A stretch of DNA of 64,000 bases from Bhargavaea sp. CC-171006 (lineage in GTDB: Bacteria > Bacillota > Bacilli > Bacillales_A > Planococcaceae): positions 1 through 64,000 of the forward strand of contig NZ_QUZH01000026.1 in NCBI RefSeq assembly GCF_009761675.1. The letters are read 5' to 3'. Under the pieces are notes generated by a model. It saw nothing but the letters and a program-made list of their open reading frames with translations. It searched no databases and was not told the origin of the DNA. The first letter of the stretch is position 1; each line of letters opens with the position of its first letter. Below are positions 23,654-46,332 of the stretch, piece after piece. A program made the translations under genes and the position numbers.

Positions 23654-23677
23654 TGCAATTTCATTGCGATTATGCAA
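23645..23677. promoter_or_regulatory. Two upstream activator sites, TTGC-N6-GCAA
   Basis: TTGCAATAATGCAA (23645-23658) and TTGCGATTATGCAA (23664-23677) are 19 bp apart and overlap the activator's stop codon. They lie about 120-150 bp upstream of the -24 element, the usual place for sigma-54 enhancers. A half-like GCAATTATTG follows at 23693. Confidence 0.65.
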
Positions 23678-23765
23678 AACTACTGAAACCATGCAATTAT
23701 TGTATTCAGAAGATTTTATATATAAAGTTAACTTTCTGTTGTGCAAATAAACTCTCCAAAAATTC

Positions 23766-23795
23766 CTGATAACCGTGCCGTTATCAGTTTTTTTA
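23766..23795 (+). terminator. Terminator of the sigma-54 activator gene
   Basis: Stem CTGATAAC / GTTATCAG with 6-nt loop, followed by TTTTTTTATTT. It insulates the activator gene from the sigma-54 promoter immediately downstream. Confidence 0.8.
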
Positions 23796-23796
23796 T

Positions 23797-23814
23797 TTGG
23801 CATGAATCTTGCTA
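23797..23814 (+). promoter_or_regulatory. Sigma-54 (-24/-12) promoter of the hyu operon
   Basis: TTGGCATGAATCTTGCTA fits the consensus TGGCAY-N5-TTGCW exactly: GG at -24, GC at -12, correct spacing. It lies 39 bp upstream of hyuA. Confidence 0.9.
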
Positions 23815-23852
23815 CTAGTTAAGGCAGAAACATAAAAAGGAGGAAATTATTA

Positions 23853-25931: not shown

Positions 25932-27742
25932 CCATGCAAATTAAAAGTGTCATTGATCCAGTTACCATGCAGGTTGTACTGGGCGCATTGGAGAATGCAG
26001 CAATTGAAATGGGTCATAAACTTGCCCGGATGTCGTACTCCAGCATCATCAGGGAATCCGAAGACTTCGGTTGTGCTCTTGTCGATCTGGAGGGTCAGCA
26101 GCTTTGTGAGTCTTCGCATAGCACGCCACTTCAGTCAGGGCCGATTCCGGGCTATGTCGAAGGGATCCGTCAGATCATGGAGGAACGGGGAGATCGTTTT
26201 GAGCCAGGGGATGTCATTCTCCACAATTCAACCTACCACGGCGCTTCCCACGGACCGGACTTCGGAATCTGTGTGCCGGTATTCCTTGACAAGAAACTGA
26301 TTGGTTTTTCCGTTACGACTGCTCACCATCTCGATGTCGGCGCATCTACACCGGGCAGCTGCGGCATTGTCGACGCGGTGGATGCCTATGCGGAGGGTCT
26401 TCAGTTCAAAGCGATCAAAGTCTATGAGAAGGGGAAGAAAAACGAGTTTATCTGGAATGTTCTGCGGGACAATATTAGAAGCTCTGACATCGTCGTAGGG
26501 GATATTGAAGCTCAAATTGCCGCAGCACGGATTGGTGCAGAACGCTACCTTGAAATTGTTAATAAATACGGACTGGAAACTGTACAGGCAACAGCCGAAG
26601 GTCTCACGAATTACTCGGAAAATATGATGAGAAGCTCTATCAGCAAATTGCCGGACGGGGAGTATTATGCTGAAGGATTTATGGACGGCTATCTGGATAG
26701 TGAGTTGGCTAGCGAAAAAGACTTGAAAGTAGCGGTTACACTCAAAGTAAAAGGTGATGAGCTGACTGTCGACTTGACGGGCACAGCTCCTCAAGCGGAT
26801 AACAAACCTATCAACATGCCGCTTAAGGGAACCGTTGATATCGCCATATATCTGACATTGCGTTCCATCTTGCTGGATTCTACAGAGTTCGGTAACTTCC
26901 CGCAGAATACCGGACTGACTCGACCAGTCCAGATTATCGCACCGGAAGGGACGATCTGTAATCCAGTGTTCCCGGCGCCTACCATTGCGCGCTTCTGTTC
27001 GGGCAATATGATTGCAGATACCTTGATGAGAGCTTTGGCGCAAGTCGTGCCAAAGCAAGTAAGTGCCGGAGTCGGCAACCTGCATGTACTGGCCATGAGC
27101 GGAAAACGGGGCAAGGACTACTGGGTGTATATGGATATCTTTGAAGGCAGTTATGGCGGACGCTATGGGAAAGATGCGATGGATGCAGTTGACACGTTAT
27201 ATGCCAATACACGGAACAATCCGATCGAGGATATTGAATCCCACTATCCACTTCGCGTTTCCAAGTATGAACTAAGAAACCATGCATGTGCGCCCGGAAA
27301 ATGGCGGGGCGGCATTGGCTCTATCCGTGAAATCACTTTCCTTGAAGAAGGTAGCTTCTCCGTTGAAGGAGATGGCCATAAATACGAGCCTTGGGGATTT
27401 GCAGGTGGTAGGGATGGTAAAGTTGGTGAACTAACCATTCGTTATCCGGACGGATCAGAGAGAGAACTCCCATCAAAAATTCCGAATACGAGGGTCACGA
27501 AGGACAGTGCGCTCAGAATGACCGGACCATGCGGAGGAGGCTATGGTAACCCGATTGAACGCTCCCCAGAACAAGTGCTGAACGATGTGCTCGATGACTA
27601 TATCACGAGGGAACAGGCGAAAACCGAGTACGGAGTAATTATCAATGAACAATTCTGCATAGACGAAGAAGCGACCTTGCAACTTAGAAAATCGCTTGTT
27701 GTAAATCGGGGGACGGGGCATGAAACTATCACAGGGAATTAA
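25928..27742 (+). CDS. hyuB: ATP-dependent hydantoinase B subunit
   Basis: A 604-residue hydantoinase B/oxoprolinase family protein and the partner of HyuA. Conserved segments are [19 protein letters not shown] at the N-terminus, [47 protein letters not shown] near residue 200 and [12 protein letters not shown] near 460. The start overlaps hyuA by 4 bp (ATGA), so translation is coupled. The pair is expected in the cytoplasm and acts on 5-substituted hydantoins, though the exact ring is not readable. Confidence 0.88.
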
Positions 27743-28994
27743 TGTAGAGCGTCTGCAAAAGCGCATCATGGACTTAGGGGAAATCGGAAAAACCCCGTCC
27801 GGCGGGGTCACCCGCCGGGCACTGAGTCCAGAAGATAAGCAAGGACATCAGCTCGTCATTGGGTGGATGAAGGAACTCGGTATGAACGTCCGATACGATC
27901 ATTTCGGTAACCTGATAGGACGGCTTGAAGGGAACCATCCTGAAATCCCCCCAGTCGTCATCGGTTCGCATATTGATACCGTTAAAAACGGAGGGAAATT
28001 CGATGGAGTAATTGGGGTGCTGGGCGGCATAGAAGTCGCCCAAACCCTTCGGGAGGAAGGGTTTTCACATGCACGCCCATTGGAAATTATCGCATTTTGT
28101 GAAGAAGAGGGTTCCAGATTTAATGACGGGCTATTTGGAAGTCGTGGAGTGGCCGGTAAGCTAAATGAATCGGACTTGATAAAACTAGATGAAAAAGGCA
28201 TCACCCGTCTTGAGGCTCTCAAAAACTTCTCTGATCAGATCCAGCCGGAAAACATGGCTCACTCAGTACTGAAGCAGGGTGAAGTTCATGCTTATCTGGA
28301 AATGCATATCGAGCAGGGCCCTTATCTTGAAGCGGAGGAACTTCCGATTGCAGTCGTCACCGATATCGCAGGACCTCATTGGATGACTATCACTTTGGAA
28401 GGAGAAGCAGGTCATGCAGGTACCGTTCCCATGCATCTGAGGAGAGACCCGGTCCCTGCGGCTTCTGAAATCATTCTGTATATAGAAAAACTGTGCAACA
28501 TGCCGGAGGCAAAAGAAACTGTGGGAACAGTGGGGATACTGGAATCCATTCCGGGAGGGAGTAATATTATTCCCGCCAAGGTGAGATTTACGCTGGACTT
28601 GCGTGACATTGACCTGGATCGGAGAGAAGGCCTGTTTAAAAGTATCGTCAACAAAATACAGGAAGTGTGCAAAGAAAGAGCAATCGACTGGAACATCGAA
28701 GAAGGAATGCGTGTTCCCCCGGTTTCATGCAGTCCAAGACTCACTTCTTATTTATTGGAAGCTATGAAAGATATGGGGCTCCCTCCTAAAAAGATGGTAA
28801 GCGGTGCAGGACATGATGCCATGCTGATGACCGAACTGACTGATGTTGGAATGATTTTTGTCCGTTGCAAAAAAGGCGTCAGCCATCAACCGGAGGAATG
28901 GGCGGATGCTGAGGATATAGCCAAAGGTACAGAAACCCTTCTGGCCGTTGCCAAAGTTTTGTTGAATGAAAGAGAAGACGCTGGTATAGCTTGA
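27720..28994 (+). CDS. hyuC: N-carbamoyl-L-amino-acid hydrolase (M20 family)
   Basis: A 424-residue zinc-dependent amidohydrolase. Metal-site residues are visible in order: GSHIDTVKNGGKFDG (His, Asp), CEEEGSRF (Glu pair), EMHIEQGPYLE (His) and SGAGHDAM (His). The central lid domain has GEAGHAGTVPM and NIIPAKV. It removes the carbamoyl group from N-carbamoyl amino acids, giving the free L-amino acid, ammonia and CO2. The start overlaps hyuB by 23 bp. Allantoate amidohydrolase and beta-ureidopropionase are close relatives, but gene order hyuA-hyuB-hyuC favours this assignment. Confidence 0.88.
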   Translation: MKLSQGINVERLQKRIMDLGEIGKTPSGGVTRRALSPEDKQGHQLVIGWMKELGMNVRYDHFGNLIGRLEGNHPEIPPVVIGSHIDTVKNGGKFDGVIGVLGGIEVAQTLREEGFSHARPLEIIAFCEEEGSRFNDGLFGSRGVAGKLNESDLIKLDEKGITRLEALKNFSDQIQPENMAHSVLKQGEVHAYLEMHIEQGPYLEAEELPIAVVTDIAGPHWMTITLEGEAGHAGTVPMHLRRDPVPAASEIILYIEKLCNMPEAKETVGTVGILESIPGGSNIIPAKVRFTLDLRDIDLDRREGLFKSIVNKIQEVCKERAIDWNIEEGMRVPPVSCSPRLTSYLLEAMKDMGLPPKKMVSGAGHDAMLMTELTDVGMIFVRCKKGVSHQPEEWADAEDIAKGTETLLAVAKVLLNEREDAGIA

Positions 28995-29068
28995 ATATGG
29001 TGGATGGGAGCTGATTTAAAATCTAAAACCTTGATATTGATATGTTTGGCTGGATGTAGAGGGTTACC

Positions 29069-30568
29069 GTGAACCTTACTAAGTCATGGTTTCAGGAGCA
29101 GGAGTATGATTTGCTTTCATTGTCGTCTCAAGACAGAAAGATCGGGGGGTCTGTATTGGATAAGAAAGGAAAAGGAATCAGTTTAACAGGTAAGGATATA
29201 ATGCCTTCAAAACCCAGCGAAAGAAATATCACTTCTCTTGGTTTCTTAATGTTATGGATTGGTATCGCTGTTCAACTAGTTACATTCGTTTCAGCAGCCC
29301 AACTCTACCCAGCACTGTCACCAACTAGTATTATACTTGCTTGTCTTTTGGGTAACTTGATTGTTGCTGGTCTGCTAACCCTAATGGGAGACATTGGAAC
29401 AAAGTATGGAATCTCATATGCAGTTTATATAAGAGCGTGCTTTGGATACTTGGGAACCCATATCCCTGCGGTTATCAGAGCACTTCCAGCTATCTTCTGG
29501 TTTGGTTTTCAAACTTGGATGGGAGCATACGCTCTAAACGTAATCATGGAGATGCTAACGGGATATTCTAATTTGATGCTATTAATAATACTGTTTGGGG
29601 CCCTTCAAATAATAAATACTGCAATGGGGATCGAGGCAATTACAAAATTTGAATGGTTGGCATCTCCGAGTATTTTAATAATAGGAATTGTTATGCAGGT
29701 AACCATAATGAAACAGCATGATATGACTCTCACAAGTCTGTTTTCACTAACGGGAGAAGGCGGAGTATCGTTTGGATTTGCGACTGTCGTCATGATGGGA
29801 ATGTACATCACTATGACATTGAATGCTCCTGATTTTACGAGGTTTTTGAAAACCAATACTTCTCCAAATGAAACAAACTGGTGGAAGTTAAACAAATCAA
29901 GCTTTTTCGGGCATACATTCGGGTTGGTTGGTTCCATGCTTTTGTTCACGCTTATCGGCATGACAAGCGGAGTTGCAACTGGTAACTGGAACCCGATTGA
30001 CGTCATGGTTGAGACCGTAGGGAAAGAAAGTCCGTTCTTACTCATTGTTTGTCTGGCTTTCATTGTTTTGGCCCAATGGTCTACTAATATAAGCGCAAAT
30101 CTATTGCCACCAGGGTATATTATTGTAAATTTCTTTCCAAAGAAAATTTCTTTTGCTGGAGGAGCCATTACAACTGGTGTGATTGGGTTGCTAATTCAAC
30201 CATGGAACTATGGGGATTATGTACCGCAAATTCTTATGGTTATCACTGCAACTCTTTCCCCTATTGTTGGAATCATGGTTGCCGACTATTATCTTTTAAG
30301 GAAAAGGAAACTAAATTTAGAAGAATTATATACAGTGAACGGACAATACAAGTATTGGAAAAACATAAACCCTGCAGCCGTTATAGCATATATACCGGCC
30401 GGCCTATCAGTCATGTTTTTTCCGGATTATGGGTTTGTCTCAGCTTTAGTAATATCCATAGCTCTATATTACCCGCTCATGAAGTATTGGATCTGTAGGA
30501 TTTACATTCAGCCAGAGATAACTGGAAAAGAACTAGTTCCAAAACCAGCGGTTCAAGATGTTAATTAA
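29069..30568 (+). CDS. hyuP: NCS1 family permease, hydantoin/allantoin type
   Basis: A 499-residue membrane protein with about 12 helices. The N-terminal [19 protein letters not shown]-type lead, the [24 protein letters not shown] helix and [12 protein letters not shown] match the nucleobase-cation symporter 1 family, which includes the Na+-hydantoin carrier Mhp1 and allantoin permeases. GTG start after AGAGGG. It lies 74 bp downstream of hyuC with no clear terminator between, and should import the ring substrate. Its codons are more AT-rich than hyuABC, so it may have joined the cluster separately. Confidence 0.85.
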
Positions 30569-30593
30569 AAATATCAAGGAGGGTGTGAGTTTT

Positions 30594-31334
30594 ATGAAAA
30601 TTAAAGTGATAAACCCAAACACCACATTAGCTATGACGAAAGGTATTGAACACGCTGCTAAGTCAAAAGCGCGGCCTGATACTGAAATACTAGCGGTAAG
30701 TCCTAAAATGGGGCCTATCTCTATTGAGTCGTACTACGATGAATATTTAAGCATTGTAGGTGTTTTGGATGAAGTCAAAAATGATGACGGTGCTGACGCG
30801 TTCGTAATAGCGTGCTATGGTGATCCAGGTTTACAAGCAGCAAGAGAAGTAACGGATAAACCTGTAATAGGAATTGCAGAAGCGTCACTTTATTTGGCAG
30901 CTACTTTGTCAGCCAGATTCTCAGTCGTGACTGTTTTGCCACGCATCAAGACTATGATCGAGGAACTGGTCGATTCATATGGAATGGCTAAGCGGGTTGT
31001 TAACGTAAGAACAACTCCCATGTGTGTAATTGACTTTGAACGAGATCCCGAGCAAGGAATGAAACTCCTACGAGAAGAAGGAAAAAGAGCAGTGGAAGAG
31101 GACGATGCAGAAGCTATCCTGTTGGGGTGCGCCGGAATGGCTGAATTTGCAGATAGCCTTGAAAAGGAACTAGGGGTTCCAGTAATTGATGGTGTAGTTG
31201 CAGCTGTAAAGATGGCAGAATCTATTGTAGATATGGGCAAAAAAACAAGTAAGACCAAGACTTACAAGTATCCTGAGAAGAAAGAGTATGTGGGCGAATT
31301 GAAAAAGTTTGGGAGCACTACTGTTCCAAACTAA
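30594..31334 (+). CDS. hyuE: Hydantoin racemase
   Basis: A 246-residue member of the Asp/Glu/hydantoin racemase superfamily. ATG 30594 is chosen because AAGGAGGG lies 10 nt upstream. The N-terminus IKVINPNTTLAMTKGI is typical of hydantoin racemases. The two catalytic cysteines are present in VIACYGDPGLQAARE near residue 76 and LLGCAGMAEFA near 180. It interconverts D- and L-5-substituted hydantoins, so both enantiomers can feed the L-specific hyuC step. Like hyuP it is AT-rich. A terminator follows. Confidence 0.9.
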   Translation: MKIKVINPNTTLAMTKGIEHAAKSKARPDTEILAVSPKMGPISIESYYDEYLSIVGVLDEVKNDDGADAFVIACYGDPGLQAAREVTDKPVIGIAEASLYLAATLSARFSVVTVLPRIKTMIEELVDSYGMAKRVVNVRTTPMCVIDFERDPEQGMKLLREEGKRAVEEDDAEAILLGCAGMAEFADSLEKELGVPVIDGVVAAVKMAESIVDMGKKTSKTKTYKYPEKKEYVGELKKFGSTTVPN

Positions 31335-35562: not shown

Positions 35563-35580
35563 CCCAAAAAAGATAGCTGA

Positions 35581-35614
35581 AGACCGCCTGGAGAAGCATA
35601 CACTCCGGGCGGTC
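35581..35614 (+). terminator. Terminator of the acetoacetate-CoA ligase operon
   Basis: Stem AGACCGCC...GGAG / CTCC...GGCGGTCT followed by TTTGTGTTT. A similar hairpin lies at 43179-43213, the start of a longer duplicated segment. Confidence 0.8.
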
Positions 35615-35630
35615 TTTGTGTTTGAAGTAT

Positions 35631-35675
35631 AAGTGGTTACCTGAATTGGATGATTACAATCTTTGGGAATGATAT
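35631..35675 (+). repeat. Single 21-bp-family repeat unit with duplicated flank
   Basis: AAGTGGTTACCTGAATTGGA plus T, then GATTACAATCTTTGGGAATGA. It matches the units at 43229-43290. The whole stretch 35579-35855 is duplicated there. Confidence 0.55.
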
Positions 35676-35717
35676 AGTTAAATGACTACTATACTTGTTT
35701 GCTCGGGAGGTATCTGC

Positions 35718-36692
35718 ATGTACAAAATCACCAATGGCACAGCAGTTAAATTCCATTCAACGACTTTCTCGGATATTGCTTATAAAGAAAGTGATGTCGA
35801 AGAGTTGCTGCGCAAGAATATCGACATGATATGCGATGAAGAGGAGTCCATGCTGATTGTCGGCAAGCAAGTCCGGAACGCTCAGCGCGGCATCAGTGAC
35901 CTCACGGCTATTGATAACAAAGGAAACATTGTACTCGTTGAGATTAAGCGAGACCGCAAGGATATTGAAGGAAGAAGAGAAGCCTTCGAGTTTCAGGCGA
36001 TCCGTTATGCGGCAAGCTACGCCACCATTGGGGATCCCGAAGATCTGGTGAACAAGATCTATGCGCCATATATTGAAAAACATCGGCATGAATTTAAAGA
36101 CAGCACTTTAACGAGTGCAGAGCTTGGTGCACGAAAACTAACGGAGTTCTTGATGGAGAACGGTGCGGAAAGTGATTTCAACGAGAAGCAGAGAATCGTA
36201 TTGGTGGCCTCCGATTTCGACGAACAGACTTTATCTGCCGTCGCGTGGCTGAACAGTAATAATGTAGACATCAGTTGTTATAAAATGATTCCTTATATAT
36301 TAAATGGTGAGATGTATATCGACATCGATAAAATTCTGCCGGTCAACTCCAATAAGGATTACTATGTGAACTTCCTGGAGAGTACGGTCAAAAGCAGCAC
36401 ACAGAAAAAAAGTATTACCAGAAGAAACCTGCCTAAAATCGACGAGATGCTTGGATGGGGCGTTGTAAAAGAAGGCGATATCATTGTTGCAAAAGGCCGT
36501 GAGGAAGAGGCTATCTTGCTGGAAAGCGGAAATGTTGAAGTGAATGGAGAAGAAACCTCGCTTCAAAAGTGGCTGAAAGAGATTTTCGGTTGGTCCAGCG
36601 TTAATACCTATGACTTTTCTATTCATAAAGAAACGGGTAAAACCCTCTCTCAAATGCGTGAAGAGTATATGGAGAGAGAGCAACAATTATAA
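35718..36692 (+). CDS. PDDEXK nuclease-like protein, NucS/DUF91-like
   Basis: A 324-residue protein from ATG 35718, 7 nt after GGGAGG; upstream in-frame codons have no such site. The N-terminal half carries a PDDEXK-type pattern: GISDLTAID (Asp) and IVLVEIKRD (E-x-K) near residues 65-80, with a preceding Glu in YKESDVEELL. Archaeal/actinobacterial NucS nucleases share this arrangement, and related DUF91-type domains occur in phage and defence contexts. The C-terminal region (residues about 200-324) is not recognised. AT-rich. The next gene, 37 bp on, also carries a PDDEXK-type fold. Its 5' end is duplicated at 43336. Confidence 0.65.
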   Translation: MYKITNGTAVKFHSTTFSDIAYKESDVEELLRKNIDMICDEEESMLIVGKQVRNAQRGISDLTAIDNKGNIVLVEIKRDRKDIEGRREAFEFQAIRYAASYATIGDPEDLVNKIYAPYIEKHRHEFKDSTLTSAELGARKLTEFLMENGAESDFNEKQRIVLVASDFDEQTLSAVAWLNSNNVDISCYKMIPYILNGEMYIDIDKILPVNSNKDYYVNFLESTVKSSTQKKSITRRNLPKIDEMLGWGVVKEGDIIVAKGREEEAILLESGNVEVNGEETSLQKWLKEIFGWSSVNTYDFSIHKETGKTLSQMREEYMEREQQL

Positions 36693-37527: not shown

Positions 37528-39096
37528 ATGATCACGGTAGACCAAATTGCTCATGAGCTTGAAAAAGCAGACGTTTCTCTTATAGCAGGCCATGAAGGAC
37601 ATGACCGAGAGATTCGATATGTAACCGCGATCGAGCTTAAGGAGAGGACTTCACGGATTCAGGAGAATGGATTGCTGCTCTCCACCTTCCATGCGTTTGA
37701 AAACGCTGAAGAAATTACAGATCATCTCCATTGGTTGGTTGAGGTCGGAGTGTCTGCAATTGGCTTTCATACATCAGTTTATCCGGACATTCCAGAACAG
37801 GTAAAGCGATTTGCCGATGATTACGGTCTGCCTGTTTTCCTGATACCAGCCGAAGTACCGTATAACCTGATATTTGAACTGTATAACCGAATGCGACAGG
37901 AAATCAGGGACGAGGCCAGGGAACGGGTCGGCCGGTTAAATAACCTGCTGATCGAATCAATTCTGTCCAGACGAAGCCTGAGAGTAATTATTGAAATGAT
38001 TGGAGAGTATTCGGGAGGGGATGTAGTCTTCTGGATGGATTCGGACCTTGAAATGTTGGAACAGTGGTCGGGCCGGCAGGTTAAGCGAGAAGCAGTTCAC
38101 TCACTTGCAGGGACCATCCAATCCGCAAACATACAGCTTCGGGAATCGCGGATCAGAAATGAGACTTACCGTCTGCCTGGTGATTCCGGTTCAGGCTGCC
38201 TGGTCATTTACCCGATTTCCTCTGATACCGGATTTGGCGGTTATATGGCTTTCCATTTCAACCAGGAACAGGACGCACCCGAACAAGGACTCATGGATGA
38301 AATGATTCGGACAGCATCCAAGATTCTCATGTCAGATGTGTATAATCCGGACAAACAGGAACGCAGGGAAATCATCAGCATCCTGGATAAGCTATTGTCA
38401 GGCGAGACGGCATCCCATTTGGTTCAGGAGCTTCCGCTTGTGGGAGAACAGATGTATCAAGTGGTCCTCATCGAATCTGCCAAGCAGGATGATACCGGAT
38501 TGTTGGAGAGGAACAGCCGGTGGGCGGATATGCAGGCTGAACAGTCAGCGGATCGATTCATCCTATTTCCGCCTTTGATTCGTGATGATCGTCTGGTGCT
38601 GCTGATCAGGGCGGATACTCCACTTCATTTATGGAAAGTGAACCTGCCTGAAAACGAGCATCTGCTGGTGGGGATCAGTGACAGAGCGAAACTGTCGGAC
38701 GCCTCATCCTATCGCCGCTTATATGGGCAGTCGGAAATTATTCTCAGGCTGTGTAGGAAAAACGGGCTTGGATACGCGGAATGGGGACAAATGGGTATTG
38801 AGAAGGTGGCTGTGTTTCTGGAAGGGGAGAGTCTGTTCCAAGGTTTTGCAGACCAGCTTTTACAGCCGCTGATCGAGTACGACCGCGAGAGGAATACAGA
38901 TCTTGTTGGGACGCTCCGAGTCTACCTGGACAATTTCTTTAATTTGAAGAAAACCGGTGAAGAACTATTCATCCATCCGAACACAGTGAAGTACAGACTC
39001 GAAACCATTCGTGGATTGCTTCCTGTTAATCTTGAAGATTCATCCATCTACGCATTATTGGTATTGGCCTACCGGTCTTATGGGGATCACCCGTAA
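37528..39096 (+). CDS. PucR family transcriptional regulator
   Basis: A 522-residue regulator from ATG 37528, 9 nt after AAGGGG. The N-terminal PucR domain (ITVDQIAHELEKADVSLIAG, then GLPVFLIPAEVPYNLIFEL) is followed by a middle GGDEF-like module and a C-terminal helix-turn-helix (LYLDNFFNLKKTGEELFIHPNTVKYRLETI is spread over residues about 460-495). The founding member activates purine catabolism genes in Bacillus subtilis; others control amino acid and amine use. It is placed just upstream of the symporter, amidohydrolase and creatinase-like genes and probably activates them. Confidence 0.88.
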   Translation: MITVDQIAHELEKADVSLIAGHEGHDREIRYVTAIELKERTSRIQENGLLLSTFHAFENAEEITDHLHWLVEVGVSAIGFHTSVYPDIPEQVKRFADDYGLPVFLIPAEVPYNLIFELYNRMRQEIRDEARERVGRLNNLLIESILSRRSLRVIIEMIGEYSGGDVVFWMDSDLEMLEQWSGRQVKREAVHSLAGTIQSANIQLRESRIRNETYRLPGDSGSGCLVIYPISSDTGFGGYMAFHFNQEQDAPEQGLMDEMIRTASKILMSDVYNPDKQERREIISILDKLLSGETASHLVQELPLVGEQMYQVVLIESAKQDDTGLLERNSRWADMQAEQSADRFILFPPLIRDDRLVLLIRADTPLHLWKVNLPENEHLLVGISDRAKLSDASSYRRLYGQSEIILRLCRKNGLGYAEWGQMGIEKVAVFLEGESLFQGFADQLLQPLIEYDRERNTDLVGTLRVYLDNFFNLKKTGEELFIHPNTVKYRLETIRGLLPVNLEDSSIYALLVLAYRSYGDHP

Positions 39097-39218
39097 GGCT
39101 GGTTTTGTTGATGACAGACAAATTCATTAGATATGTTTGTGGATGGCTCACATGGTGATTTGGTTGTTTACATTATAAGATTTAATTATTCAATATTATC
39201 AGTAATTTGCGAGGGGGA

Positions 39219-39235
39219 TGGAAAGCGCTTTCTAA
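39219..39235. promoter_or_regulatory. Cre-like box upstream of the symporter operon
   Basis: GGAAAGCGCTTTCT is a near-palindromic cre-type site 46 bp upstream of the symporter ATG. Confidence 0.65.
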
Positions 39236-39280
39236 CTGGGGTAATGAAGGGACCATAATTAAGATAAGGGGTGAACGAGA

Positions 39281-40693
39281 ATGAGCATCTATCTGGTTGC
39301 AGTCGTTATTTATCTGATTCTGATGGCACTGATCGGCGTCTACTTCGCCAAAAGTTCAATCAAGAACAGTGATGACTTCATGGTGGCGGGAAGAAGCCTG
39401 CCGCTGTGGATTGTCATCGGGACGCTTCTCGCGACTTTCGTCGGTTCCGGCACCGTTGTCGGCGGGGCCAGTTTTATCTATCAATACGGTCCATTTGCGG
39501 CCATCTTTAACTTATCCGGCGGGTTTGTCGGTGCGTTCATCTTATACCTGATTGCCAGCAAGGTCCGGCAAAGTGAGATGTATACGGTTCCGCAACTGCT
39601 TGAAAAAAGATTTGGCACAGCTACGCGAGTTATTGCTTCAGTTTTTATTCTGCTGGCTTACGTCGGAATCACTGCTTACCAGTTTACCGGAGGCGCGTAT
39701 GTCCTGCAGCTGACTACAGGGATGCCGCTTGAAGTAGGAGCGATTGTCATGTGTGCGCTGGTCATTTTCCTGACGATGAGCGGCGGGCTTTTCTCGGTTG
39801 CTTATTCGGATGCGCTGGGTGCGGTGCTGATTCTGATCGGGTTTATCATCGGGATTCCGTTTGCCCTGAATGCAGCGGGAGGGTTCAGCGGACTTGCGGA
39901 GGCTCTGCCGGCAGTGACGAAGACATGGAACGGCGGCCTGTCCATTCCGCAGCTGCTAGGCTTCTTCCTTCCTCTGTTCCTGCTGGTGCTGGGGGACCAA
40001 AATATGTACCAGCGGTTTGCTGCAGCAAAAGATGAGCTCACGGCCAAGCGTTCAGTGCTTGGGTTTATTGCAGGTAACGCGCTTGTCGTCAGCCTCGTCA
40101 TCATGATGGCGACAACAGCCATTGTGCTGTTTCCGACCATTTCACCGGATGCCGCAATCCTGACTGTCGCAATCGAAGGAGTTCCGGTTGCAATCGGCGT
40201 ACTGATCCTTTGCGCTTCGGTCGCTTTTCTGATCACGACGGCCACTTCTTATCTGCTTTCCGCATCCGGCAATATAGTGTACGACCTCGTGCAACGTTTC
40301 AGCAAAAAAGAGCTTCCGGAACAAAAGCTGCTCTGGCTGAACCGGGGTACCGTGCTCGGACTTGGTGTATTTGCATACGTGCTTGGCCAATTCTTCCCAA
40401 GTGTCCTGGCGATCCAGATGTACTCGTATACGATGTATGGCGCGGCCATTACACCGGCGATCATCGCGACGCTGTTGTGGAAGAAGGCGACCACGGCGGG
40501 CATCATGAGCTCCATTATTGTCGGAGGATCGGCCACGATGTTCTGGGAGCTGGTGCTCAACCGGCCGTTTGACTGGAACAGTGTGCTGTTCGCGCTTCCG
40601 CTTTCTGTGATCACACTGGTTGTCGTAAGCCTGGCAACACAAAAGAAAGGGGCAAGCCTGACGCTCGGCAACAAGAATCTGAATATGGAGTAA
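39281..40693 (+). CDS. Sodium:solute symporter (SSS family)
   Basis: A 470-residue membrane protein with about 13 helices. SIKNSDDFMVAGRSLPLWIV near the N-terminus, GTVVGGASFIYQYG and the helix GLFSVAYSDALGAVLILIG match the SSS family (relatives of PutP and PanF), which couples Na+ entry to uptake of amino acids, carboxylates or sugars. It opens an operon with the amidohydrolase (12 bp gap) and the M24 protein. Its cargo is probably an amide or dipeptide-like substrate of those hydrolases. Confidence 0.88.
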   Translation: MSIYLVAVVIYLILMALIGVYFAKSSIKNSDDFMVAGRSLPLWIVIGTLLATFVGSGTVVGGASFIYQYGPFAAIFNLSGGFVGAFILYLIASKVRQSEMYTVPQLLEKRFGTATRVIASVFILLAYVGITAYQFTGGAYVLQLTTGMPLEVGAIVMCALVIFLTMSGGLFSVAYSDALGAVLILIGFIIGIPFALNAAGGFSGLAEALPAVTKTWNGGLSIPQLLGFFLPLFLLVLGDQNMYQRFAAAKDELTAKRSVLGFIAGNALVVSLVIMMATTAIVLFPTISPDAAILTVAIEGVPVAIGVLILCASVAFLITTATSYLLSASGNIVYDLVQRFSKKELPEQKLLWLNRGTVLGLGVFAYVLGQFFPSVLAIQMYSYTMYGAAITPAIIATLLWKKATTAGIMSSIIVGGSATMFWELVLNRPFDWNSVLFALPLSVITLVVVSLATQKKGASLTLGNKNLNME

Positions 40694-40705
40694 GGAGAAG
40701 GGGTT

Positions 40706-41920
40706 TTGACGGTGGAATATATCATTTCTAACGTACGTCTGCTGTTTGGGGAAGAGCTGGAGCTGGTTGAAAACCGGGCAGTATGGGTGAAGGATGGAAT
40801 CATCCAGGATGTGATCGAGGATTCGGAAATACCTGAAGGGCTTCTTGTCTATGACGGACGCGGCCATCTGCTCATGCCGGGACTGATCGACCTCCATATC
40901 CACATGATGTGGGACGGCACCGCCGATCCCGTGGCAACCCTTGAATCGGAAGGGTACGAGCAGATGCTGATTCGGGCGGTGTCTAACTGCAGGCATTACC
41001 TGGAACATGGAATCACCACTGTGCGTGACATCGGTTCCGTTGATGATATCGCGCTGCATGTGGCCAAAAGCATCCGGCGAGGGCTGGTTCCGGGACCGGA
41101 TGTGATTGCGAGCGGGAAGACGCTGACGATGACCGGCGGGCATGACCCGTTCTGGGCACGGTTTGTGGACGGGAAAGATGAAGCGCTGAAAGGTGTCCGT
41201 GAGCAGATTTACAAGGGTGCCCAGGTCATCAAGGTAAGTGCGACCGGTGGGGCATACGGACGTGATGAAGGGGAACAGGTCGGCCATTCCGAGCTGAACC
41301 TCGAGGAACTGCAGATCATCGCTAATGAGGCGCACCGCTTCGGGCTTAAGGTGGCTTCCCATGCGATAGGAAGAGATGGCATTCGGAACTCACTGCTGGC
41401 CGGCATCGATACGATCGAGCATGGGCACTACCTTGATGACGAGCTGGTGGAACTGATGAAAGAACGCGGAGCGGCATGGATCCCAACCCTGCATGTATAC
41501 CAACAGCTTGCATCCATGAAAGAAATACCCGCATATGCTAAGGAAAAGGCGAGGGAAATCACAGAAGTCCATGCAGCGGCATTCAGAAAATACTTTGAGA
41601 GCGGCGTCCTGGTCGGGGCGGGCTCCGACGCGGGTTCGCCGGGCACTTCCCATCACGCATTAAAAGACGAACTGTATGCGATGCATGAGCTGGTGCCTGA
41701 TACGAAAGCTGTGCTGAAAACCGCCACGGTAAATGCCGGCGAGATTTTGGGGTTAAATGTCGGAAAGATTGAAAAGGGATGCAAGGCCGATCTTCTGATG
41801 GTGGCGGGCAATCCGCTGGAAAGCCTCTCCCATCTTGAAAAGGTCAAGCAGGTCATTGTGGACGGAGAGATTGTGGTCAATCACGGCCTTTCTGGAACAC
41901 CGGAACTGGAAACGGTATAA
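40706..41920 (+). CDS. Metal-dependent amidohydrolase, prolidase/imidazolonepropionase-like
   Basis: A 404-residue amidohydrolase superfamily enzyme; TTG 40706 or GTG 40712 both have AAGGRG-like sites. Metal ligands are visible: HIH in DLHIHMMWDG near residue 66, the carboxylated lysine in GAQVIKVSATGG near 176, His in ASHAIG near 217 and in IEHGHYL near 240, and Asp in GAGSDAGSP near 310. This COG1228-type group includes Xaa-Pro and other Xaa-amino-acid dipeptidases and N-acyl amino acid hydrolases. It is paralogous to the protein at 58209-59444. Confidence 0.87.
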   Translation: MTVEYIISNVRLLFGEELELVENRAVWVKDGIIQDVIEDSEIPEGLLVYDGRGHLLMPGLIDLHIHMMWDGTADPVATLESEGYEQMLIRAVSNCRHYLEHGITTVRDIGSVDDIALHVAKSIRRGLVPGPDVIASGKTLTMTGGHDPFWARFVDGKDEALKGVREQIYKGAQVIKVSATGGAYGRDEGEQVGHSELNLEELQIIANEAHRFGLKVASHAIGRDGIRNSLLAGIDTIEHGHYLDDELVELMKERGAAWIPTLHVYQQLASMKEIPAYAKEKAREITEVHAAAFRKYFESGVLVGAGSDAGSPGTSHHALKDELYAMHELVPDTKAVLKTATVNAGEILGLNVGKIEKGCKADLLMVAGNPLESLSHLEKVKQVIVDGEIVVNHGLSGTPELETV

Positions 41921-41944
41921 AACATTAAAAAAGGCGGGATCTGA

Positions 41945-43099
41945 ATGAATACAGAAAAACGGGTACAAAAATTGCGCGAAGTGATGGACGCTAAGGGAAT
42001 CGATGTATCGGTCATCTTCAATTTTGAAAATCAGTATTATTTCAGCGGATTAAAGGCAATTACCTATTCCAGGCCGATTGTGCTGCTGGTGGACAAGAAG
42101 AAAACGACAATGATCATTCCATCTCTTGAGGAGGAGCATGCCAAGGCGAAAACGAATGTCGATGAACTGTATGTCTATCATGAAGTAAAGTCGAAAACTG
42201 GGCAGGGAGAGTCCTACACGGAGCATTTCAACACGATCCTATCGAGCTACCCGAAAGGTACGGTAATCGGGGCAGAGTTCGCTTCCTTCTCTGTGAAGTT
42301 GGAGCAGATCGCACATAAGCACGGAGCGGAACTGGTCAGCATCGACCAGGAAATCGTAGACATGCGGGCGGTCAAGGATGAGGAGGAAATGGCCATGATC
42401 GCGGAATCCGGCCGCCTCGTCAGCCTCGCGCTCAAGCATTCTCTTGAGAATGCAGCTGCCGGAATGTCCGAAATTGAAATGGATCAGTTCGGGACACATG
42501 CCTTGTTCAATGAAGTGGCGGAATGTCATCCAAACGCGACGCTCGACTACTTCGTCATGTCTCCGTCCGGTGTTGAACGCACCAACATGCCGCATGTTTT
42601 CTCCAACACCCGCCAGCTGGAAGAGCAGGACATCATCATCCACAGCCGTCAGGTCGGTCTTAATGGCTACCGTGCAGAGTGCGAGCGGACCTTCTTTATC
42701 GGCCGCCCGACGGACAAGCAGAAAGACGCCTTCAAAGTTGCGGTGGAGGCCCAGGCAGCTGCTCTCGATTTCATTAAGGTCGGCGTCACGGCAAAAGAGG
42801 TCAATGAAGTCGCACGCAAAGTGATAGAAAAAGCGGGTCTCGAACCGTATGTCAACCACCGTACTGGCCACGGCATCGGTATTGGTCTCCACGAAGAACC
42901 GTCACTCCGATACGACAATGATCTGGTCCTGAAGCCTGGCATGGCTTTCTGCGTGGAACCGGGCATCTATATCCCTGAAGTCGGCGGCTTCCGCCATTCG
43001 GACACGGTCATTCTGAAGGAAAACGGAACAGAACTGATTACGGAATATCCAAGTGATTTGGAGTCGTTGGTGTTTGATGGGGTGAAGACAGGCGTTTAA
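41945..43099 (+). CDS. Creatinase-like M24 family hydrolase lacking the metal site
   Basis: A 384-residue pita-bread-fold protein. Prolidase-type M24 enzymes need D-D-H-E-E to hold two metals. Here the first Asp is Ser234, the second Glu245 and the last Glu is Ser352; only His309 and Glu338 remain. The residues used by metal-free creatinase are kept instead: His217 (NMPH), Glu247 (ECERTFF) and Glu338 (CVEPG). It may therefore hydrolyse a C-N bond in a creatine-, guanidino- or ectoine-like compound. Last gene of the symporter-amidohydrolase operon. An ordinary aminopeptidase assignment is less likely. Confidence 0.8.
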   Translation: MNTEKRVQKLREVMDAKGIDVSVIFNFENQYYFSGLKAITYSRPIVLLVDKKKTTMIIPSLEEEHAKAKTNVDELYVYHEVKSKTGQGESYTEHFNTILSSYPKGTVIGAEFASFSVKLEQIAHKHGAELVSIDQEIVDMRAVKDEEEMAMIAESGRLVSLALKHSLENAAAGMSEIEMDQFGTHALFNEVAECHPNATLDYFVMSPSGVERTNMPHVFSNTRQLEEQDIIIHSRQVGLNGYRAECERTFFIGRPTDKQKDAFKVAVEAQAAALDFIKVGVTAKEVNEVARKVIEKAGLEPYVNHRTGHGIGIGLHEEPSLRYDNDLVLKPGMAFCVEPGIYIPEVGGFRHSDTVILKENGTELITEYPSDLESLVFDGVKTGV

Positions 43100-43178
43100 G
43101 AACGATTGTTAAAGAGTTTTTCAGAAAGAGCGCGCAACAAAGCTGTTTTGGATGCTATGAAAAAGTATAAATAATGGA

Positions 43179-43213
43179 AGACCGCCTGGAGAGTAAGACT
43201 TTCTGGGCGGTCT
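43179..43213 (+). terminator. Terminator, copy of the 35581 hairpin
   Basis: AGACCGCC / GGCGGTCT with a 19-nt inner part, followed by TTTGTATTTG. It ends the symporter-M24 operon and begins the duplicated segment. Confidence 0.75.
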
Positions 43214-43228
43214 TTGTATTTGAAGTAT

Positions 43229-43290
43229 GAGTAGTTACCCTGGAGGGATGAGTTGTTACCTAGATTGAATGATTACATTCTTTGGGAATG
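43229..43290 (+). repeat. 21-bp-period repeat, two to three units
   Basis: Units at 43229 (GAGTAGTTACCC...) and 43250 (GAGTTGTTACCT...), then GATTACATTCTTTGGGAATGA. The same motif family occurs at 5442, 35631 and 60958-61163. Confidence 0.6.
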
Positions 43291-43335
43291 ATATAGTTAA
43301 ATGACTATTTCTCTTTCTGCTCGGGAGGTATCCAT

Positions 43336-43481
43336 ATGTACAAAACAGCAACGGCACAGCAATTAAGTTCCATTCAACGACTTTTTCGGATATTGCTTAT
43401 AAAGAAAGTGATATCGAAGAATTGTTGCGCAAAAATATCGATATGATATCAGATGAAGAGGAGTCCATGCTGATTAATTGA
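43336..43481 (+). pseudogene. Truncated copy of the NucS/DUF91-like gene
   Basis: Near-identical to 35718-35855, including the GCTCGGGAGGTAT ribosome binding site. A one-base deletion soon after TACAAAA shifts the frame. Homology ends at GAGTCCATGCTGATT, where the intact gene continues with GTCGG and this copy runs into a stop. Only the first roughly 45 codons are present, so it is non-functional. Confidence 0.85.
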
Positions 43482-43527: not shown

Positions 43528-44523
43528 ATGGGGATCAATAAAAGGTTTCTGGCCGGACTGGTTGGTGCCTCCTTGGTTATTGGCGGGTGCAGCCACTTTG
43601 CATCTGGAAAAGACGAAGTTGTTGAAGATGCAGATTCAAGATCCGGCCTAGAAGCAGGCGGAGGAGAACAAGACGTGACATCTTCAAATACAAACAGCGA
43701 TAAGCAGAATGCCTATGAAAAAGAAAACTTCGTTAGAGTACAAGATTATACCGGCGAGGGCTACGAATTACGGGATGCCAATCAAGAGATTGAAAAGGCG
43801 GCAAGGGCTGCATCCGAACAAATTGAAAACGCAGTTTCCGCTTTCTTTATGAAAAAATACAAAACGGAAATAACCGTTACGAACATTGTCGGTGCACGGG
43901 ATGCTGCAACTGTTTATGTAGAGTCGGTGGCGGACCCGCATTTCTATACATATGCCATCGTTCCTTATGACTTTTCAACCGGGACAATGAGAACGGATGA
44001 TGTATGGACCCAGGAAGGTCAAGTGGAAATTGCACTATATGGTTGGCTTTATGCAAAAGCATACCCGGAACAATTCACCAAGCTGAATCAATTTCTTGAA
44101 GGGTTTGTTAACTCTAATCCTGTGACCGGTTTGACTGCTGAAGCCGTTTCAAAGGTAAAGGGGAGCGGTTTCTCGAATGTTTATTATCTCGTCAGCCCCT
44201 TCGGGCTGGCTTTTGAAGATGCTTTGAAACTCTATTTGAAAAATCCGCAAGTGTCTGTAGAGCAAATCCGGCAAGTATTAGAAGAAACAGGTTATGATGC
44301 GAAGCACGTATCATTTGGGATTACCTTGTATATGGAAGAAGAAGCGGCACCGGATCCAGATATAATCGATTCGCTTTCATCAGGGATCAATGAATTAACC
44401 GGAATTCCTATTGGTGCATACTCGCTGAATCTTAACGATAATTATATCGACAAGCGGAGAGCCAGCGGAAACAAAGAAAATAGTATAGATCTCACTTGGC
44501 CTAATGAAATTATTAAAGAATGA
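43528..44523 (+). CDS. DUF1672-type putative lipoprotein
   Basis: A 331-residue protein with a lipoprotein signal: positive MGINKRF start, hydrophobic stretch, and lipobox VIGGC (Cys21). A Ser/Asn/Gly-rich linker follows. The mature region (FVRVQDYTGEGYELRDANQEI, later YAIVPYDFSTG and EIALYGWLYAKAYPEQF) matches the DUF1672 lipoproteins of Bacillus and Staphylococcus. These sit on the outer face of the membrane; their function is unknown. Monocistronic, with ACAGGAGG before the ATG and a strong terminator downstream at 44621. Confidence 0.8.
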   Translation: MGINKRFLAGLVGASLVIGGCSHFASGKDEVVEDADSRSGLEAGGGEQDVTSSNTNSDKQNAYEKENFVRVQDYTGEGYELRDANQEIEKAARAASEQIENAVSAFFMKKYKTEITVTNIVGARDAATVYVESVADPHFYTYAIVPYDFSTGTMRTDDVWTQEGQVEIALYGWLYAKAYPEQFTKLNQFLEGFVNSNPVTGLTAEAVSKVKGSGFSNVYYLVSPFGLAFEDALKLYLKNPQVSVEQIRQVLEETGYDAKHVSFGITLYMEEEAAPDPDIIDSLSSGINELTGIPIGAYSLNLNDNYIDKRRASGNKENSIDLTWPNEIIKE

Positions 44524-44920: not shown

Positions 44921-44967
44921 AGATAAGGATAAATGTCTGGGCTTGGCTTGTGACAGGGGGAGAAACT

Positions 44968-46332
44968 ATGAGTCACCAAACCACAATATTGGATATCGAT
45001 CAGGTTTTTCTGGAGGCCATCGATCAGAGTTTCGATGGCTTCGTGCTGTCGGATTTGAAGGGGAGGATCTTCTACGCAAACAAAGCGGTTGAGGAAATTT
45101 CCGGTGTACCCACAACTGAAATCGTTGGGAAGACTACAAAAGACATGGAGGAAGACGGAATCATCATCAGCCAATCGATGAAAATCCTAAAGAAGGACCC
45201 GCTGACAATTTCCCAGAAGCTCCGAACGGGAATTGAGGTCTTTATTACGAGTAAGCCGGTTTATGATGAGGACGGTCAGTTTATCTGCTATGTGGCCAAT
45301 TATCACCGTTTCTCAAGAATTGATGACTTGTACCGTGAGCACCACAACCAGGTAGACATTAATTATACCGAGCTGCAGCAGCTCAGGCTCCAGATGCTGA
45401 AAACCGATGAGTGGATTGGTGCATCATTTGAGACAAAGAAATTAAAAGAGAAAGTGGCCAAAGTCGCGAAGACCGAAGCCAATATCCTGATCATTGGTGA
45501 GTCCGGGGTCGGAAAGGAAGTCGTCTCCAAAACCATTCACAAAGTCAGTGACCGGCGCGAGTTCCCGTATATTCAGATCAACTGTGGGGCGATTCCCGAG
45601 ACGCTGATGGAAGCCGAATTATTCGGGCATGAAAAAGGAGCATTCACCGGCGCTCTGAGTGCGAAGCCGGGTTTGCTGGAAGCAGCCGATAAAGGAACGG
45701 TGCTTCTGGATGAAATCGGGGAGATTCCATTGCACCTCCAGGTCAAGCTGCTGAGGGTGATCCAGACCCGGGAAGTCACCAGAGTTGGCGGAACGAAACC
45801 GCGAAAGCTGGATATCCGATTTCTTGCCGCCACCAACAGGGATCTGAAACAAATGGTTCAGGAGGGGAAGTTTAGGGAGGACCTGTATTACCGTCTGAAT
45901 GTCATCCCGATTAAAATCCCGCCGCTCCGTGACCGTAAGAAAGATATTTCGGTTCTCTGCAGGCACTTCCTGGAGAAGTACAATAAAAAGTATGCTGTGA
46001 ATAAAGAACTTACTAAAGCTGCTTACCGCCTTCTCACTGCATATGCCTGGCCGGGCAACGTCAGGCAACTGGAGAATACGATGGAACAGCTGGTGATTCT
46101 GACGGAAGGACCTGAAATAGATGATCGGGATCTGCCCCGAGAACTTCTCAAGAATCAGGTCGAGGAGTATTTCCCTGATGAAATCATTCCGCTTCCTGAG
46201 CTGCGGGAACAGACTGAAATACGGATGATCCGTTTGGCGCTGGACCGATACAAGACGATCAGGGAAGCAGCCAGGCATCTCGAAGTGGACCATTCAACTC
46301 TAGTGAAGAAAATCAAAAAGTATGGAATGTAG
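44968..46332 (+). CDS. Sigma-54-dependent activator of the beta-oxidation operon
   Basis: A 454-residue enhancer-binding protein from ATG 44968, behind AGGGGGAG; GTG 44950 is upstream of that site. Residues about 10-125 form a PAS sensor (FDGFVLSDLKGRIFYANKAVEEISG). The AAA+ core has Walker A GESGVGKEVVSKTIH near 180, an intact GAFTGA near 225, Walker B LLDEIGEI near 250 and WPGNVRQLENT near 375. The C-terminal helix-turn-helix is IREAARHLEVDHSTLVKKIKK. Three palindromes and a -24/-12 promoter lie just downstream, so the acyl-CoA genes are its target. Related to fatty-acid and branched-acid activators such as BkdR. Confidence 0.93.
   Translation: MSHQTTILDIDQVFLEAIDQSFDGFVLSDLKGRIFYANKAVEEISGVPTTEIVGKTTKDMEEDGIIISQSMKILKKDPLTISQKLRTGIEVFITSKPVYDEDGQFICYVANYHRFSRIDDLYREHHNQVDINYTELQQLRLQMLKTDEWIGASFETKKLKEKVAKVAKTEANILIIGESGVGKEVVSKTIHKVSDRREFPYIQINCGAIPETLMEAELFGHEKGAFTGALSAKPGLLEAADKGTVLLDEIGEIPLHLQVKLLRVIQTREVTRVGGTKPRKLDIRFLAATNRDLKQMVQEGKFREDLYYRLNVIPIKIPPLRDRKKDISVLCRHFLEKYNKKYAVNKELTKAAYRLLTAYAWPGNVRQLENTMEQLVILTEGPEIDDRDLPRELLKNQVEEYFPDEIIPLPELREQTEIRMIRLALDRYKTIREAARHLEVDHSTLVKKIKKYGM

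What the first reader, a model, noticed from the sequence alone, without database searches (positions are those of the whole stretch)
37528..43099. Creatinase-like, metal-free M24 enzyme coupled to an amidohydrolase and Na+ symporter
The M24 protein has lost three of five metal ligands (Ser234, Glu245, Ser352) but keeps the creatinase-type His217, Glu247 and Glu338. With a PucR regulator, cre box, symporter and a dipeptidase-like amidohydrolase, this is a candidate two-step pathway for a guanidino, ectoine-like or cyclic amide compound.
Basis: partly seen in the sequence, partly recalled or inferred. Interest (0 to 1): 0.62.

Follow-up and report, generated by a model that had tools for sequence, protein, structure and literature searches.

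The report
Altered-site hydrolase beside proline-breakdown genes
A four-gene bacterial cassette (regulator, sodium-driven importer and two hydrolases) carries an unstudied enzyme family whose usual metal site has been rebuilt to look like creatinase; some relatives sit beside proline and hydroxyproline breakdown genes, so it probably releases those amino acids from an imported derivative rather than acting on ectoine.

Summary
Window 37528-43099 encodes a PucR regulator, an SSS symporter, an amidohydrolase (AH) and an M24 protein. At the five dinuclear ligand positions the M24 protein has S234, E245, H309, E338, S352. H217, E247 and R43-P44 match creatinase. It is not a private loss: the pattern recurs in nearly all relatives examined.

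"Metal-free" is not shown: E245, H309 and E338 could still hold one metal.

Ectoine is unlikely. The same genome has a separate EutD-like gene (486 bits to the EutD model; the window protein about 73) in its own cluster.

New finding: the family is linked to proline and hydroxyproline catabolism. In 37 genomes, 5 M24-proline dehydrogenase pairs lie within 5 kb (0.18 expected). One SSS-M24-AH set (53-58% identical) lies inside a 4-hydroxyproline operon, another in one operon with proline dehydrogenase. The window itself has no such gene nearby.

Best reading: the cassette imports an N-acyl or peptide-like (possibly N-amidino) derivative of proline or hydroxyproline, and M24 cleaves the bond to the imino nitrogen using a creatinase-type site. 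The exact substrate is unknown. Creatine remains a minor rival. Verdict: new variant of a known kind.

The parts
37528..39096 (+). PucR-family transcriptional regulator, likely regulator of the cassette
   Evidence: PF07905 66.7 bits, PF13556 60.6 bits; a PucR relative is present in 25 of 100 distinct loci
39220..39233 (.). cre-like palindrome GGAAAGCGCTTTCT in the 184-bp gap before the symporter gene
   Evidence: 2 mismatches to TGWAANCGNTNWCA, a quality met by chance in the window; palindrome kept with paired changes in L041 and L042
39281..40693 (+). SSS-family sodium:solute symporter, likely importer of the substrate
   Evidence: PF00474 132 bits; SSS relative in 59 of 100 distinct loci
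40706..41920 (+). Amidohydrolase (AH), Xaa-Pro dipeptidase / arginine carboxypeptidase-like, with H64-x-H66, K176, H219, H239, D308
   Evidence: PF01979 142 bits; NF051886 250 bits, cut-off 500; 3mtw 180.5 bits, 2qs8 168.6 bits; residues in 37 of 37 aligned
41945..43099 (+). M24 / pita-bread hydrolase with creatinase-type, non-dinuclear active site (R43, H217, S234, E245, E247, H309, E338, H351, S352)
   Evidence: PF00557 159 bits, PF01321 73 bits; alignments; model pLDDT 91.5, best matches creatinases
43180..43212 (+). G+C-rich inverted repeat followed by a T-rich stretch, possible terminator of the cassette
   Evidence: read by eye; not listed by the pattern scan; its near copy lies at 35579 (repeat D3)

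Best explanation
The cassette is a nutrient-scavenging unit. PucR senses the compound or a product of it; the SSS symporter imports an N-substituted proline or hydroxyproline (a peptide-like or N-acyl, possibly N-amidino, derivative). The M24 enzyme hydrolyses the bond to the imino nitrogen: R43 (creatinase R64 equivalent) would hold the carboxylate, H217 would act as base/acid, and E247, E338 and E245 would hold the polarised group and water, with no dinuclear metal centre. The AH, an Xaa-Pro-dipeptidase-like hydrolase, acts on a related or preceding bond. The freed proline or hydroxyproline goes to proline dehydrogenase or the hydroxyproline pathway, both present elsewhere in this genome. 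Shown: gene order, residues, fold, conservation, linkage in relatives. Inferred: substrate class, roles of single residues, order of steps.
For: (1) Linkage: 5 M24-ProDH pairs within 5 kb (4 genera) against 0.18 expected in 37 genomes, 7 within 12 kb against 0.40; a control family (ELFV dehydrogenases, 103 matches) comes no nearer than 27.9 kb. (2) L072 (Siminovitchia): D-amino-acid-oxidase type (DAO) - Pro racemase family x2 - Na/H antiporter - DHDPS - SSS - M24 - AH - ALDH, same strand and close together; SSS, M24 and AH are 58, 53 and 55% identical to the window's. The gene families are those of the 4-hydroxyproline pathway in PMC4113996 (passages). (3) L090: PucR-AH-SSS-M24-AH-ProDH in one operon, SSS 73%, AH 68%, M24 50%. 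(4) Plasmid NZ_CP062791.1: OCD, ProDH, pruA, a short 'aconitase X' entry, BCCT, then M24. (5) Other neighbours are peptide-related: S15 peptidase family in 20 of 100 loci; DPP4-type and SBP5 genes in L073. (6) Creatinase itself releases an N-alkyl amino acid (sarcosine; recalled), as prolidase releases proline. (7) This genome has a 4-hydroxyproline operon of the L072 kind on C9 and 2 ProDH genes.
Against: Most loci have no proline gene nearby: ProDH in 8 of 100, none in the window, and none in the loci of the 17-row clade that holds the window protein. Pro racemase family members are no nearer than 9.9 kb in the 37 genomes. Canonical M24 paralogues of this genome lie near its hydroxyproline genes too, and I did not run the linkage test for canonical M24s. 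L066 places M24 beside a sarcosine-oxidase-type complex, which fits sarcosine as well. Some neighbours point elsewhere (class-III aminotransferase and AlaDH in L065; PanB/PanE in L077; PanE in L113). No substrate was measured.
Confidence: 0.45

Rival explanations
1. Ordinary imidodipeptidase: M24 is still a metal enzyme with one metal held by E245, H309 and E338 and cleaves Xaa-Pro/Xaa-Hyp dipeptides; only the metal count has changed.
For: Best sequence matches are prolidases; three of the ligands around the His-side metal remain in kind. PMC4213023 (passages) lists the five ligands of E. coli PepQ and reports greater density for the metal chelated by His339. Same proline neighbourhood as above.
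Against: S/T234 and S352 replace two ligands in practically all members, and E247, R43 and H351 are invariant or nearly so; the fold comparison puts creatinases first, by a small margin.
Confidence: 0.22
2. Creatinase-like guanidino hydrolase: the SSS imports creatine or another guanidino acid, M24 releases urea and sarcosine (or a similar N-alkyl amino acid), and the AH feeds it from a cyclic precursor.
For: R43-P44, H217, E247-R-T, H309 and E338 match 1chm; top Z scores are creatinases; in L066 SSS-M24 is followed by a sarcosine-oxidase-type complex (soxB model 204 bits, below its cut-off of 529) and an aldehyde ferredoxin oxidoreductase.
Against: Only 24-26% identity; creatinase H376 is S352 and A260 is E245; no Arg aligns with the R335 region. 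Proline genes recur near the family more than sarcosine-type genes do. Urease is found in 13 of 37 M24 genomes and none is near M24.
Confidence: 0.13
3. The cassette opens and cleaves a cyclic amide, such as a proline-containing diketopiperazine or a hydantoin.
For: HyuA/HyuB relatives lie within a few kb of the family in L071, L072, L092 and L108, and a hydantoin-type operon (22115-31334) lies upstream in the window.
Against: HyuA in 5 of 100 loci only, the window included; the window's HyuAB operon has its own regulator, permease and racemase-family gene; I know of no M24 that opens such rings (recall).
Confidence: 0.1
4. Ectoine/hydroxyectoine hydrolase (EutD/DoeA) with the AH as deacetylase.
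For: Same superfamily; PucR, BCCT and EutD occur together in putative Bacillota ectoine clusters (PMC13188858, section 8 read).
Against: Window M24 scores 72-74 bits against TIGR02993 (cut-off 613); a separate gene at G000:C4 scores 486 (also below the cut-off) and 397 bits to solved EutD, and sits with PucR-, ALDH-, BCCT- and aminotransferase-like genes. Its residues at columns 234, 245, 247, 309 and 338 differ from those of the window protein.
Confidence: 0.03

Closest known systems
Creatinase (creatine amidinohydrolase; 1chm, 1kp0, 7yto)
   Same: Pita-bread fold, best structural match (Z 42.6-42.8, 369 residues, 24-26% identity); R-P, active-site His, E-R-T motif, H309, E338 columns; no dinuclear ligand set
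   Different: S352 for creatinase H376, E245 for A260, no aligned R335; activity untested
M24B prolidases / Xaa-Pro dipeptidases (1wy2, 1pv9, PepQ)
   Same: Best sequence matches; proline-related neighbourhood in some relatives; H217, H309, E338 columns
   Different: 3 of 5 metal ligands replaced; E247, R43, H351 gained
Ectoine hydrolase EutD/DoeA (6twk, 6yo9)
   Same: M24 fold without the dinuclear ligand set; PucR in putative Bacillota clusters
   Different: Scores 72-74 bits versus a cut-off of 613; the genome has its own better EutD; residues differ
Dipeptidase-like amidohydrolases (3mtw arginine carboxypeptidase, 2qs8 Xaa-Pro dipeptidase)
   Same: AH has six expected active-site residues (set recalled); 180.5 and 168.6 bits
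   Different: Below the NF051886 cut-off (250 of 500 bits); substrate unknown
4-hydroxyproline catabolic operon (4HypE, D-amino acid oxidase, DHDPS, KGSA dehydrogenase; PMC4113996, passages)
   Same: In Siminovitchia (L072) the SSS-M24-AH trio is built into such an operon
   Different: In the window genome that operon is on another contig (C9) without the trio

Membership tests
Creatinase (EC 3.5.3.3) | Catalytic His and Glu set and carboxylate Arg64 (H232, E262, E358, H324, R64; roles recalled) | tested here: met
   H217, E247, E338, H309, R43 align
Creatinase (EC 3.5.3.3) | H376 and R335 (roles recalled) | tested here: not met
   S352 at the H376 column; no Arg aligned with R335
Creatinase (EC 3.5.3.3) | Hydrolyses creatine to urea and sarcosine | not testable with these tools
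   needs an assay
M24B dinuclear prolidase | Five ligands D, D, H, E, E | tested here: not met
   S234, E245, H309, E338, S352
M24B dinuclear prolidase | Cleaves Xaa-Pro | not testable with these tools
   needs an assay
Ectoine hydrolase EutD/DoeA | TIGR02993 curated cut-off 613 bits | tested here: not met
   73.8 bits, 71.9 bits
Pita-bread (M24) fold | Fold and Pfam domains | tested here: met
   PF00557 159 bits, PF01321 73 bits; Z about 43
Amidohydrolase superfamily | HxH, Lys, His, His, Asp set (recalled) | tested here: met
   H64, H66, K176, H219, H239, D308 in 37 of 37
NF051886 Xaa-Pro dipeptidase (AH) | Curated cut-off 500 bits | tested here: not met
   250.1 bits
SSS symporter | PF00474 gathering score | tested here: met
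   132 bits, cut-off 22.8; TIGR00813 144.4, below its cut-off of 184
PucR regulator | PF07905 plus HTH_30 | tested here: met
   66.7 and 60.6 bits

The most novel reading that the evidence does not exclude
A patchily spread family (a member on plasmid NZ_CP062791.1 is annotated 'Xaa-Pro peptidase family') is really a creatinase-type, metal-independent hydrolase that frees proline or hydroxyproline from an N-substituted form. That would be a second, metal-free chemistry for the bond to an imino nitrogen in the prolidase fold, serving an undescribed uptake pathway, mainly in Bacillota.
Probability: 0.25. Interest if true: 0.65.

Novelty: new variant of a known kind. Interest (0 to 1): 0.42.

Why it matters
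The family has a fixed, non-canonical active site and recurs with changing transporters (SSS, BCCT, MFS, amino-acid permease), yet the member on an annotated record seen here is called 'Xaa-Pro peptidase family'. If it is a metal-independent imino-bond hydrolase, it would explain a scavenging route for collagen-type or osmolyte-type proline derivatives, correct annotation, and give a natural test of how the prolidase fold swaps metal catalysis for Glu/His catalysis.

Tried and rejected
Ectoine: rejected as main reading because of the separate EutD-type gene and cluster. Pantothenate (PanF-model score of the SSS 109 bits, cut-off 328; PanB/PanE beside L077; PanE downstream in L113): only two loci, L113 with a gap of about 430 bp; set aside. 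Beta-alanine type (aminotransferase III, AlaDH, ALDH; L065, L082): a further case, L130, fell with a canonical paralogue on the tree and was dropped. Private decay of one gene: rejected, the pattern is family-wide.

Phylogeny: the tree separates the family from the prolidase and the paralogues by a long branch, but creatinase (branch about 8) and the paralogues are long rows and deep forks are open, so kinship to creatinase is unresolved. In one search the rows own_L004 and own_L008 were wrong ORFs; they were replaced and are not used. Row L087 was left out of the tree. Literature: the listings showed no paper on this cassette; the held library lacks most subscription papers. Promoter and terminator scans were at shuffle level. 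VIA-align used only Foldseek's top chains; the Z gap of about 1.4 between creatinase and prolidase is small.

Biases: the genome scan kept the best 80 of 361 confirmed relatives; near-identical strains count apart in the 100 loci; the window was counted with all its 64 kb, the others with about 8-21 kb. The Poisson test treats genomes as independent; G127 and G633 are one genus, so at least 4 independent events. Canonical M24s were not run as a linkage control, all genome searches being used.
Full report
What is there. Window 37528-43099 holds four same-strand genes: PucR regulator, SSS symporter, amidohydrolase (AH), M24 protein; the last three are 12 and 24 bp apart. The genome is close to Bhargavaea: the M24 is 96% identical to that of B. 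cecembensis (L041). The 184-bp gap before the symporter holds the palindrome GGAAAGCGCTTTCT (39220-39233). A match of that quality to the cre consensus is expected by chance in this window, but it stays palindromic in two relatives in otherwise changed sequence.

The M24 active site. Against P. furiosus prolidase (1pv9) and creatinase 1chm the ligand columns D, D, H, E, E read S234, E245, H309, E338, S352. R43-P44, H217, E247 (E-R-T), H309 and E338 agree with creatinase; R43 and E247 are absent from that prolidase. Seventeen sequences found by similarity (window included; 17 of 200 genomes of the family) all have the pattern, T replacing S at 234 in 6 of 17. In 80 aligned sequences (window plus 79 scan loci, some from the same genomes as the 17): R43 80, E245 80, E247 80, H217 79, S/T234 78/2, and H309, E338, H351, S352 79 each, the missing row being L087, broken by a stop. 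One scan pattern spells E245 and E247, so those two are partly circular there. Thirteen further members found by profile or tblastn have R43, H217, E245, E247, H309, E338, H351 and S352 in 13 of 13, with S/T 11/2 at 234 (one search covers 20, of which 7 were among the 17). 'Metal-free' is an inference: E245, H309 and E338 might hold one metal, and PMC4213023 (passages) notes for E. coli PepQ greater density for the metal on the His side.

Spread. At strict cut-offs the family was found in 17 of 200 genomes (family), 27 of 261 (order), 10 of 398 (class) and 3 of 398 (phylum), each count including this genome. The contig scan reached Thermodesulfobacteriota, Chloroflexota and Synergistota as well.

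Fold. AlphaFold2 from 17 sequences gave pLDDT 91.5, pTM 0.88. The best VIA-align matches are three creatinases (Z 42.8, 42.7, 42.6; 369 residues; rmsd 2.0), then prolidases (41.2 and below) and EutD (39.0). By sequence the order is the reverse: prolidases first, 1chm further down. The deep tree is unresolved because creatinase is a very long branch.

Not ectoine. The window protein scores 73.8 bits against TIGR02993 (cut-off 613). Another gene of the same genome, G000:C4:6210-7376, scores 486, also below the cut-off, and 397 bits to solved EutD/DoeA. On its 9.8-kb contig lie relatives of PucR, ALDH, BCCT and class-III aminotransferase (24-35% identity to my references) and a 400-aa gene that I read by eye as M20-type. 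This resembles the putative Bacillota ectoine clusters of PMC13188858 (section 8 read).

Neighbourhoods. In 100 distinct loci: SSS in 59, AH 26, PucR 25, BCCT 24, S15 peptidase family 20, ProDH 8. The transporter is the common partner; the AH is optional (8 of 37 M24 genomes have a relative at E<=1e-60). Two loci carry close relatives of all three window genes inside a catabolic operon. L072 has DAO, two proline-racemase-family genes, an antiporter, DHDPS, SSS, M24, AH, ALDH, the gene families of 4-hydroxyproline breakdown in PMC4113996 (passages). L090 has PucR, AH, SSS, M24, AH, ProDH. Identities to the window's SSS, AH and M24 are 58/55/53% and 73/68/50%. A Cytobacillus plasmid has OCD, ProDH, pruA and a 213-bp gene annotated aconitase X upstream of BCCT, a fragment of the S15 gene and M24; aconitase X is a cis-3-hydroxyproline dehydratase according to the listed abstract of PMC5144071.

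A test of linkage. The 37 genomes found with the family (39 M24 places) hold 58 ProDH matches. Five pairs lie within 5 kb (G112, G127, G633, G931, G599) against 0.184 expected (Poisson 1.5e-6), and 7 within 12 kb against 0.40. G127 and G633 are one genus, so at least four events are independent. Control: 103 ELFV dehydrogenase matches (recount), nearest 27.9 kb, measured for the 33 on an M24 contig as I read them off. Pro racemase family: 36 matches, nearest 9.9 kb, so that family alone gives no strong support. Urease: 13 of 37 genomes, none near. L066 and L087 have a sarcosine-oxidase-type complex nearby, which fits an N-alkyl amino acid product of either kind.

The host. This genome has its own 4-hydroxyproline operon on contig C9, homologous to that of L072 (DAO 69%, racemase family 73%, DHDPS 61%, ALDH 69%), and two ProDH genes, so freed proline or hydroxyproline could be used. 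There is no ProDH in the window, nor in the loci of the 17-row clade that holds the window protein.

Mechanism, inferred. Creatinase frees sarcosine and prolidase frees proline (recalled); both are N-alkyl amino acids, and features of both sites are found here. I propose that R43 holds the carboxylate of proline or hydroxyproline, H217 acts as acid/base, and E247/E338/E245 hold the water and the polarised group. The AH has a complete set of expected active-site residues (37 of 37) and resembles Xaa-Pro and Xaa-Arg dipeptidases. Which bond each enzyme cuts, and whether the group on the nitrogen is acyl, aminoacyl or amidino, is unknown.

Verdict. A real and conserved variant of a known fold with an uncommon active site, better linked to proline/hydroxyproline than to ectoine. 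Interest is moderate.

Noticed in passing
window 22115-31334: Hydantoin-type operon: sigma-54 regulator, HyuA, HyuB, M20 hydrolase, cytosine/purine/allantoin-type permease, Asp/Glu/hydantoin racemase family.
   Followed up: partly
window 35579-35858 and 43177-43475: Direct repeats of 84-90% identity (134, 65 and 63 nt) flank the cassette and the two ORFs before it; the second copy holds a truncated start of the ORF at 35682. In L041 the cassette has other neighbours, so it may have moved.
   Followed up: partly
L127 (G000:C4, 9780 bases): Separate cluster with EutD-like, PucR-, ALDH-, BCCT- and aminotransferase-like genes and an M20-type gene (by eye): probable ectoine catabolism.
   Followed up: partly
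L151 (G000:C9:15000-34999): 4-hydroxyproline operon with two canonical M24 genes and a family-5 solute-binding-protein gene nearby.
   Followed up: partly
L087 9962-11155: M24 family member interrupted by a stop codon in Dethiosulfatibacter aminovorans.
   Followed up: no
L069 4768-5901 and 9657-10790: Two copies of the M24 family around AH and SSS genes in Oceanobacillus jeddahense.
   Followed up: no
window 43528-44523 and 44950-46332: DUF1672 protein, then a sigma-54 regulator followed by a gene set with an acyl-CoA dehydrogenase and an AMP-binding enzyme, downstream of the cassette.
   Followed up: no
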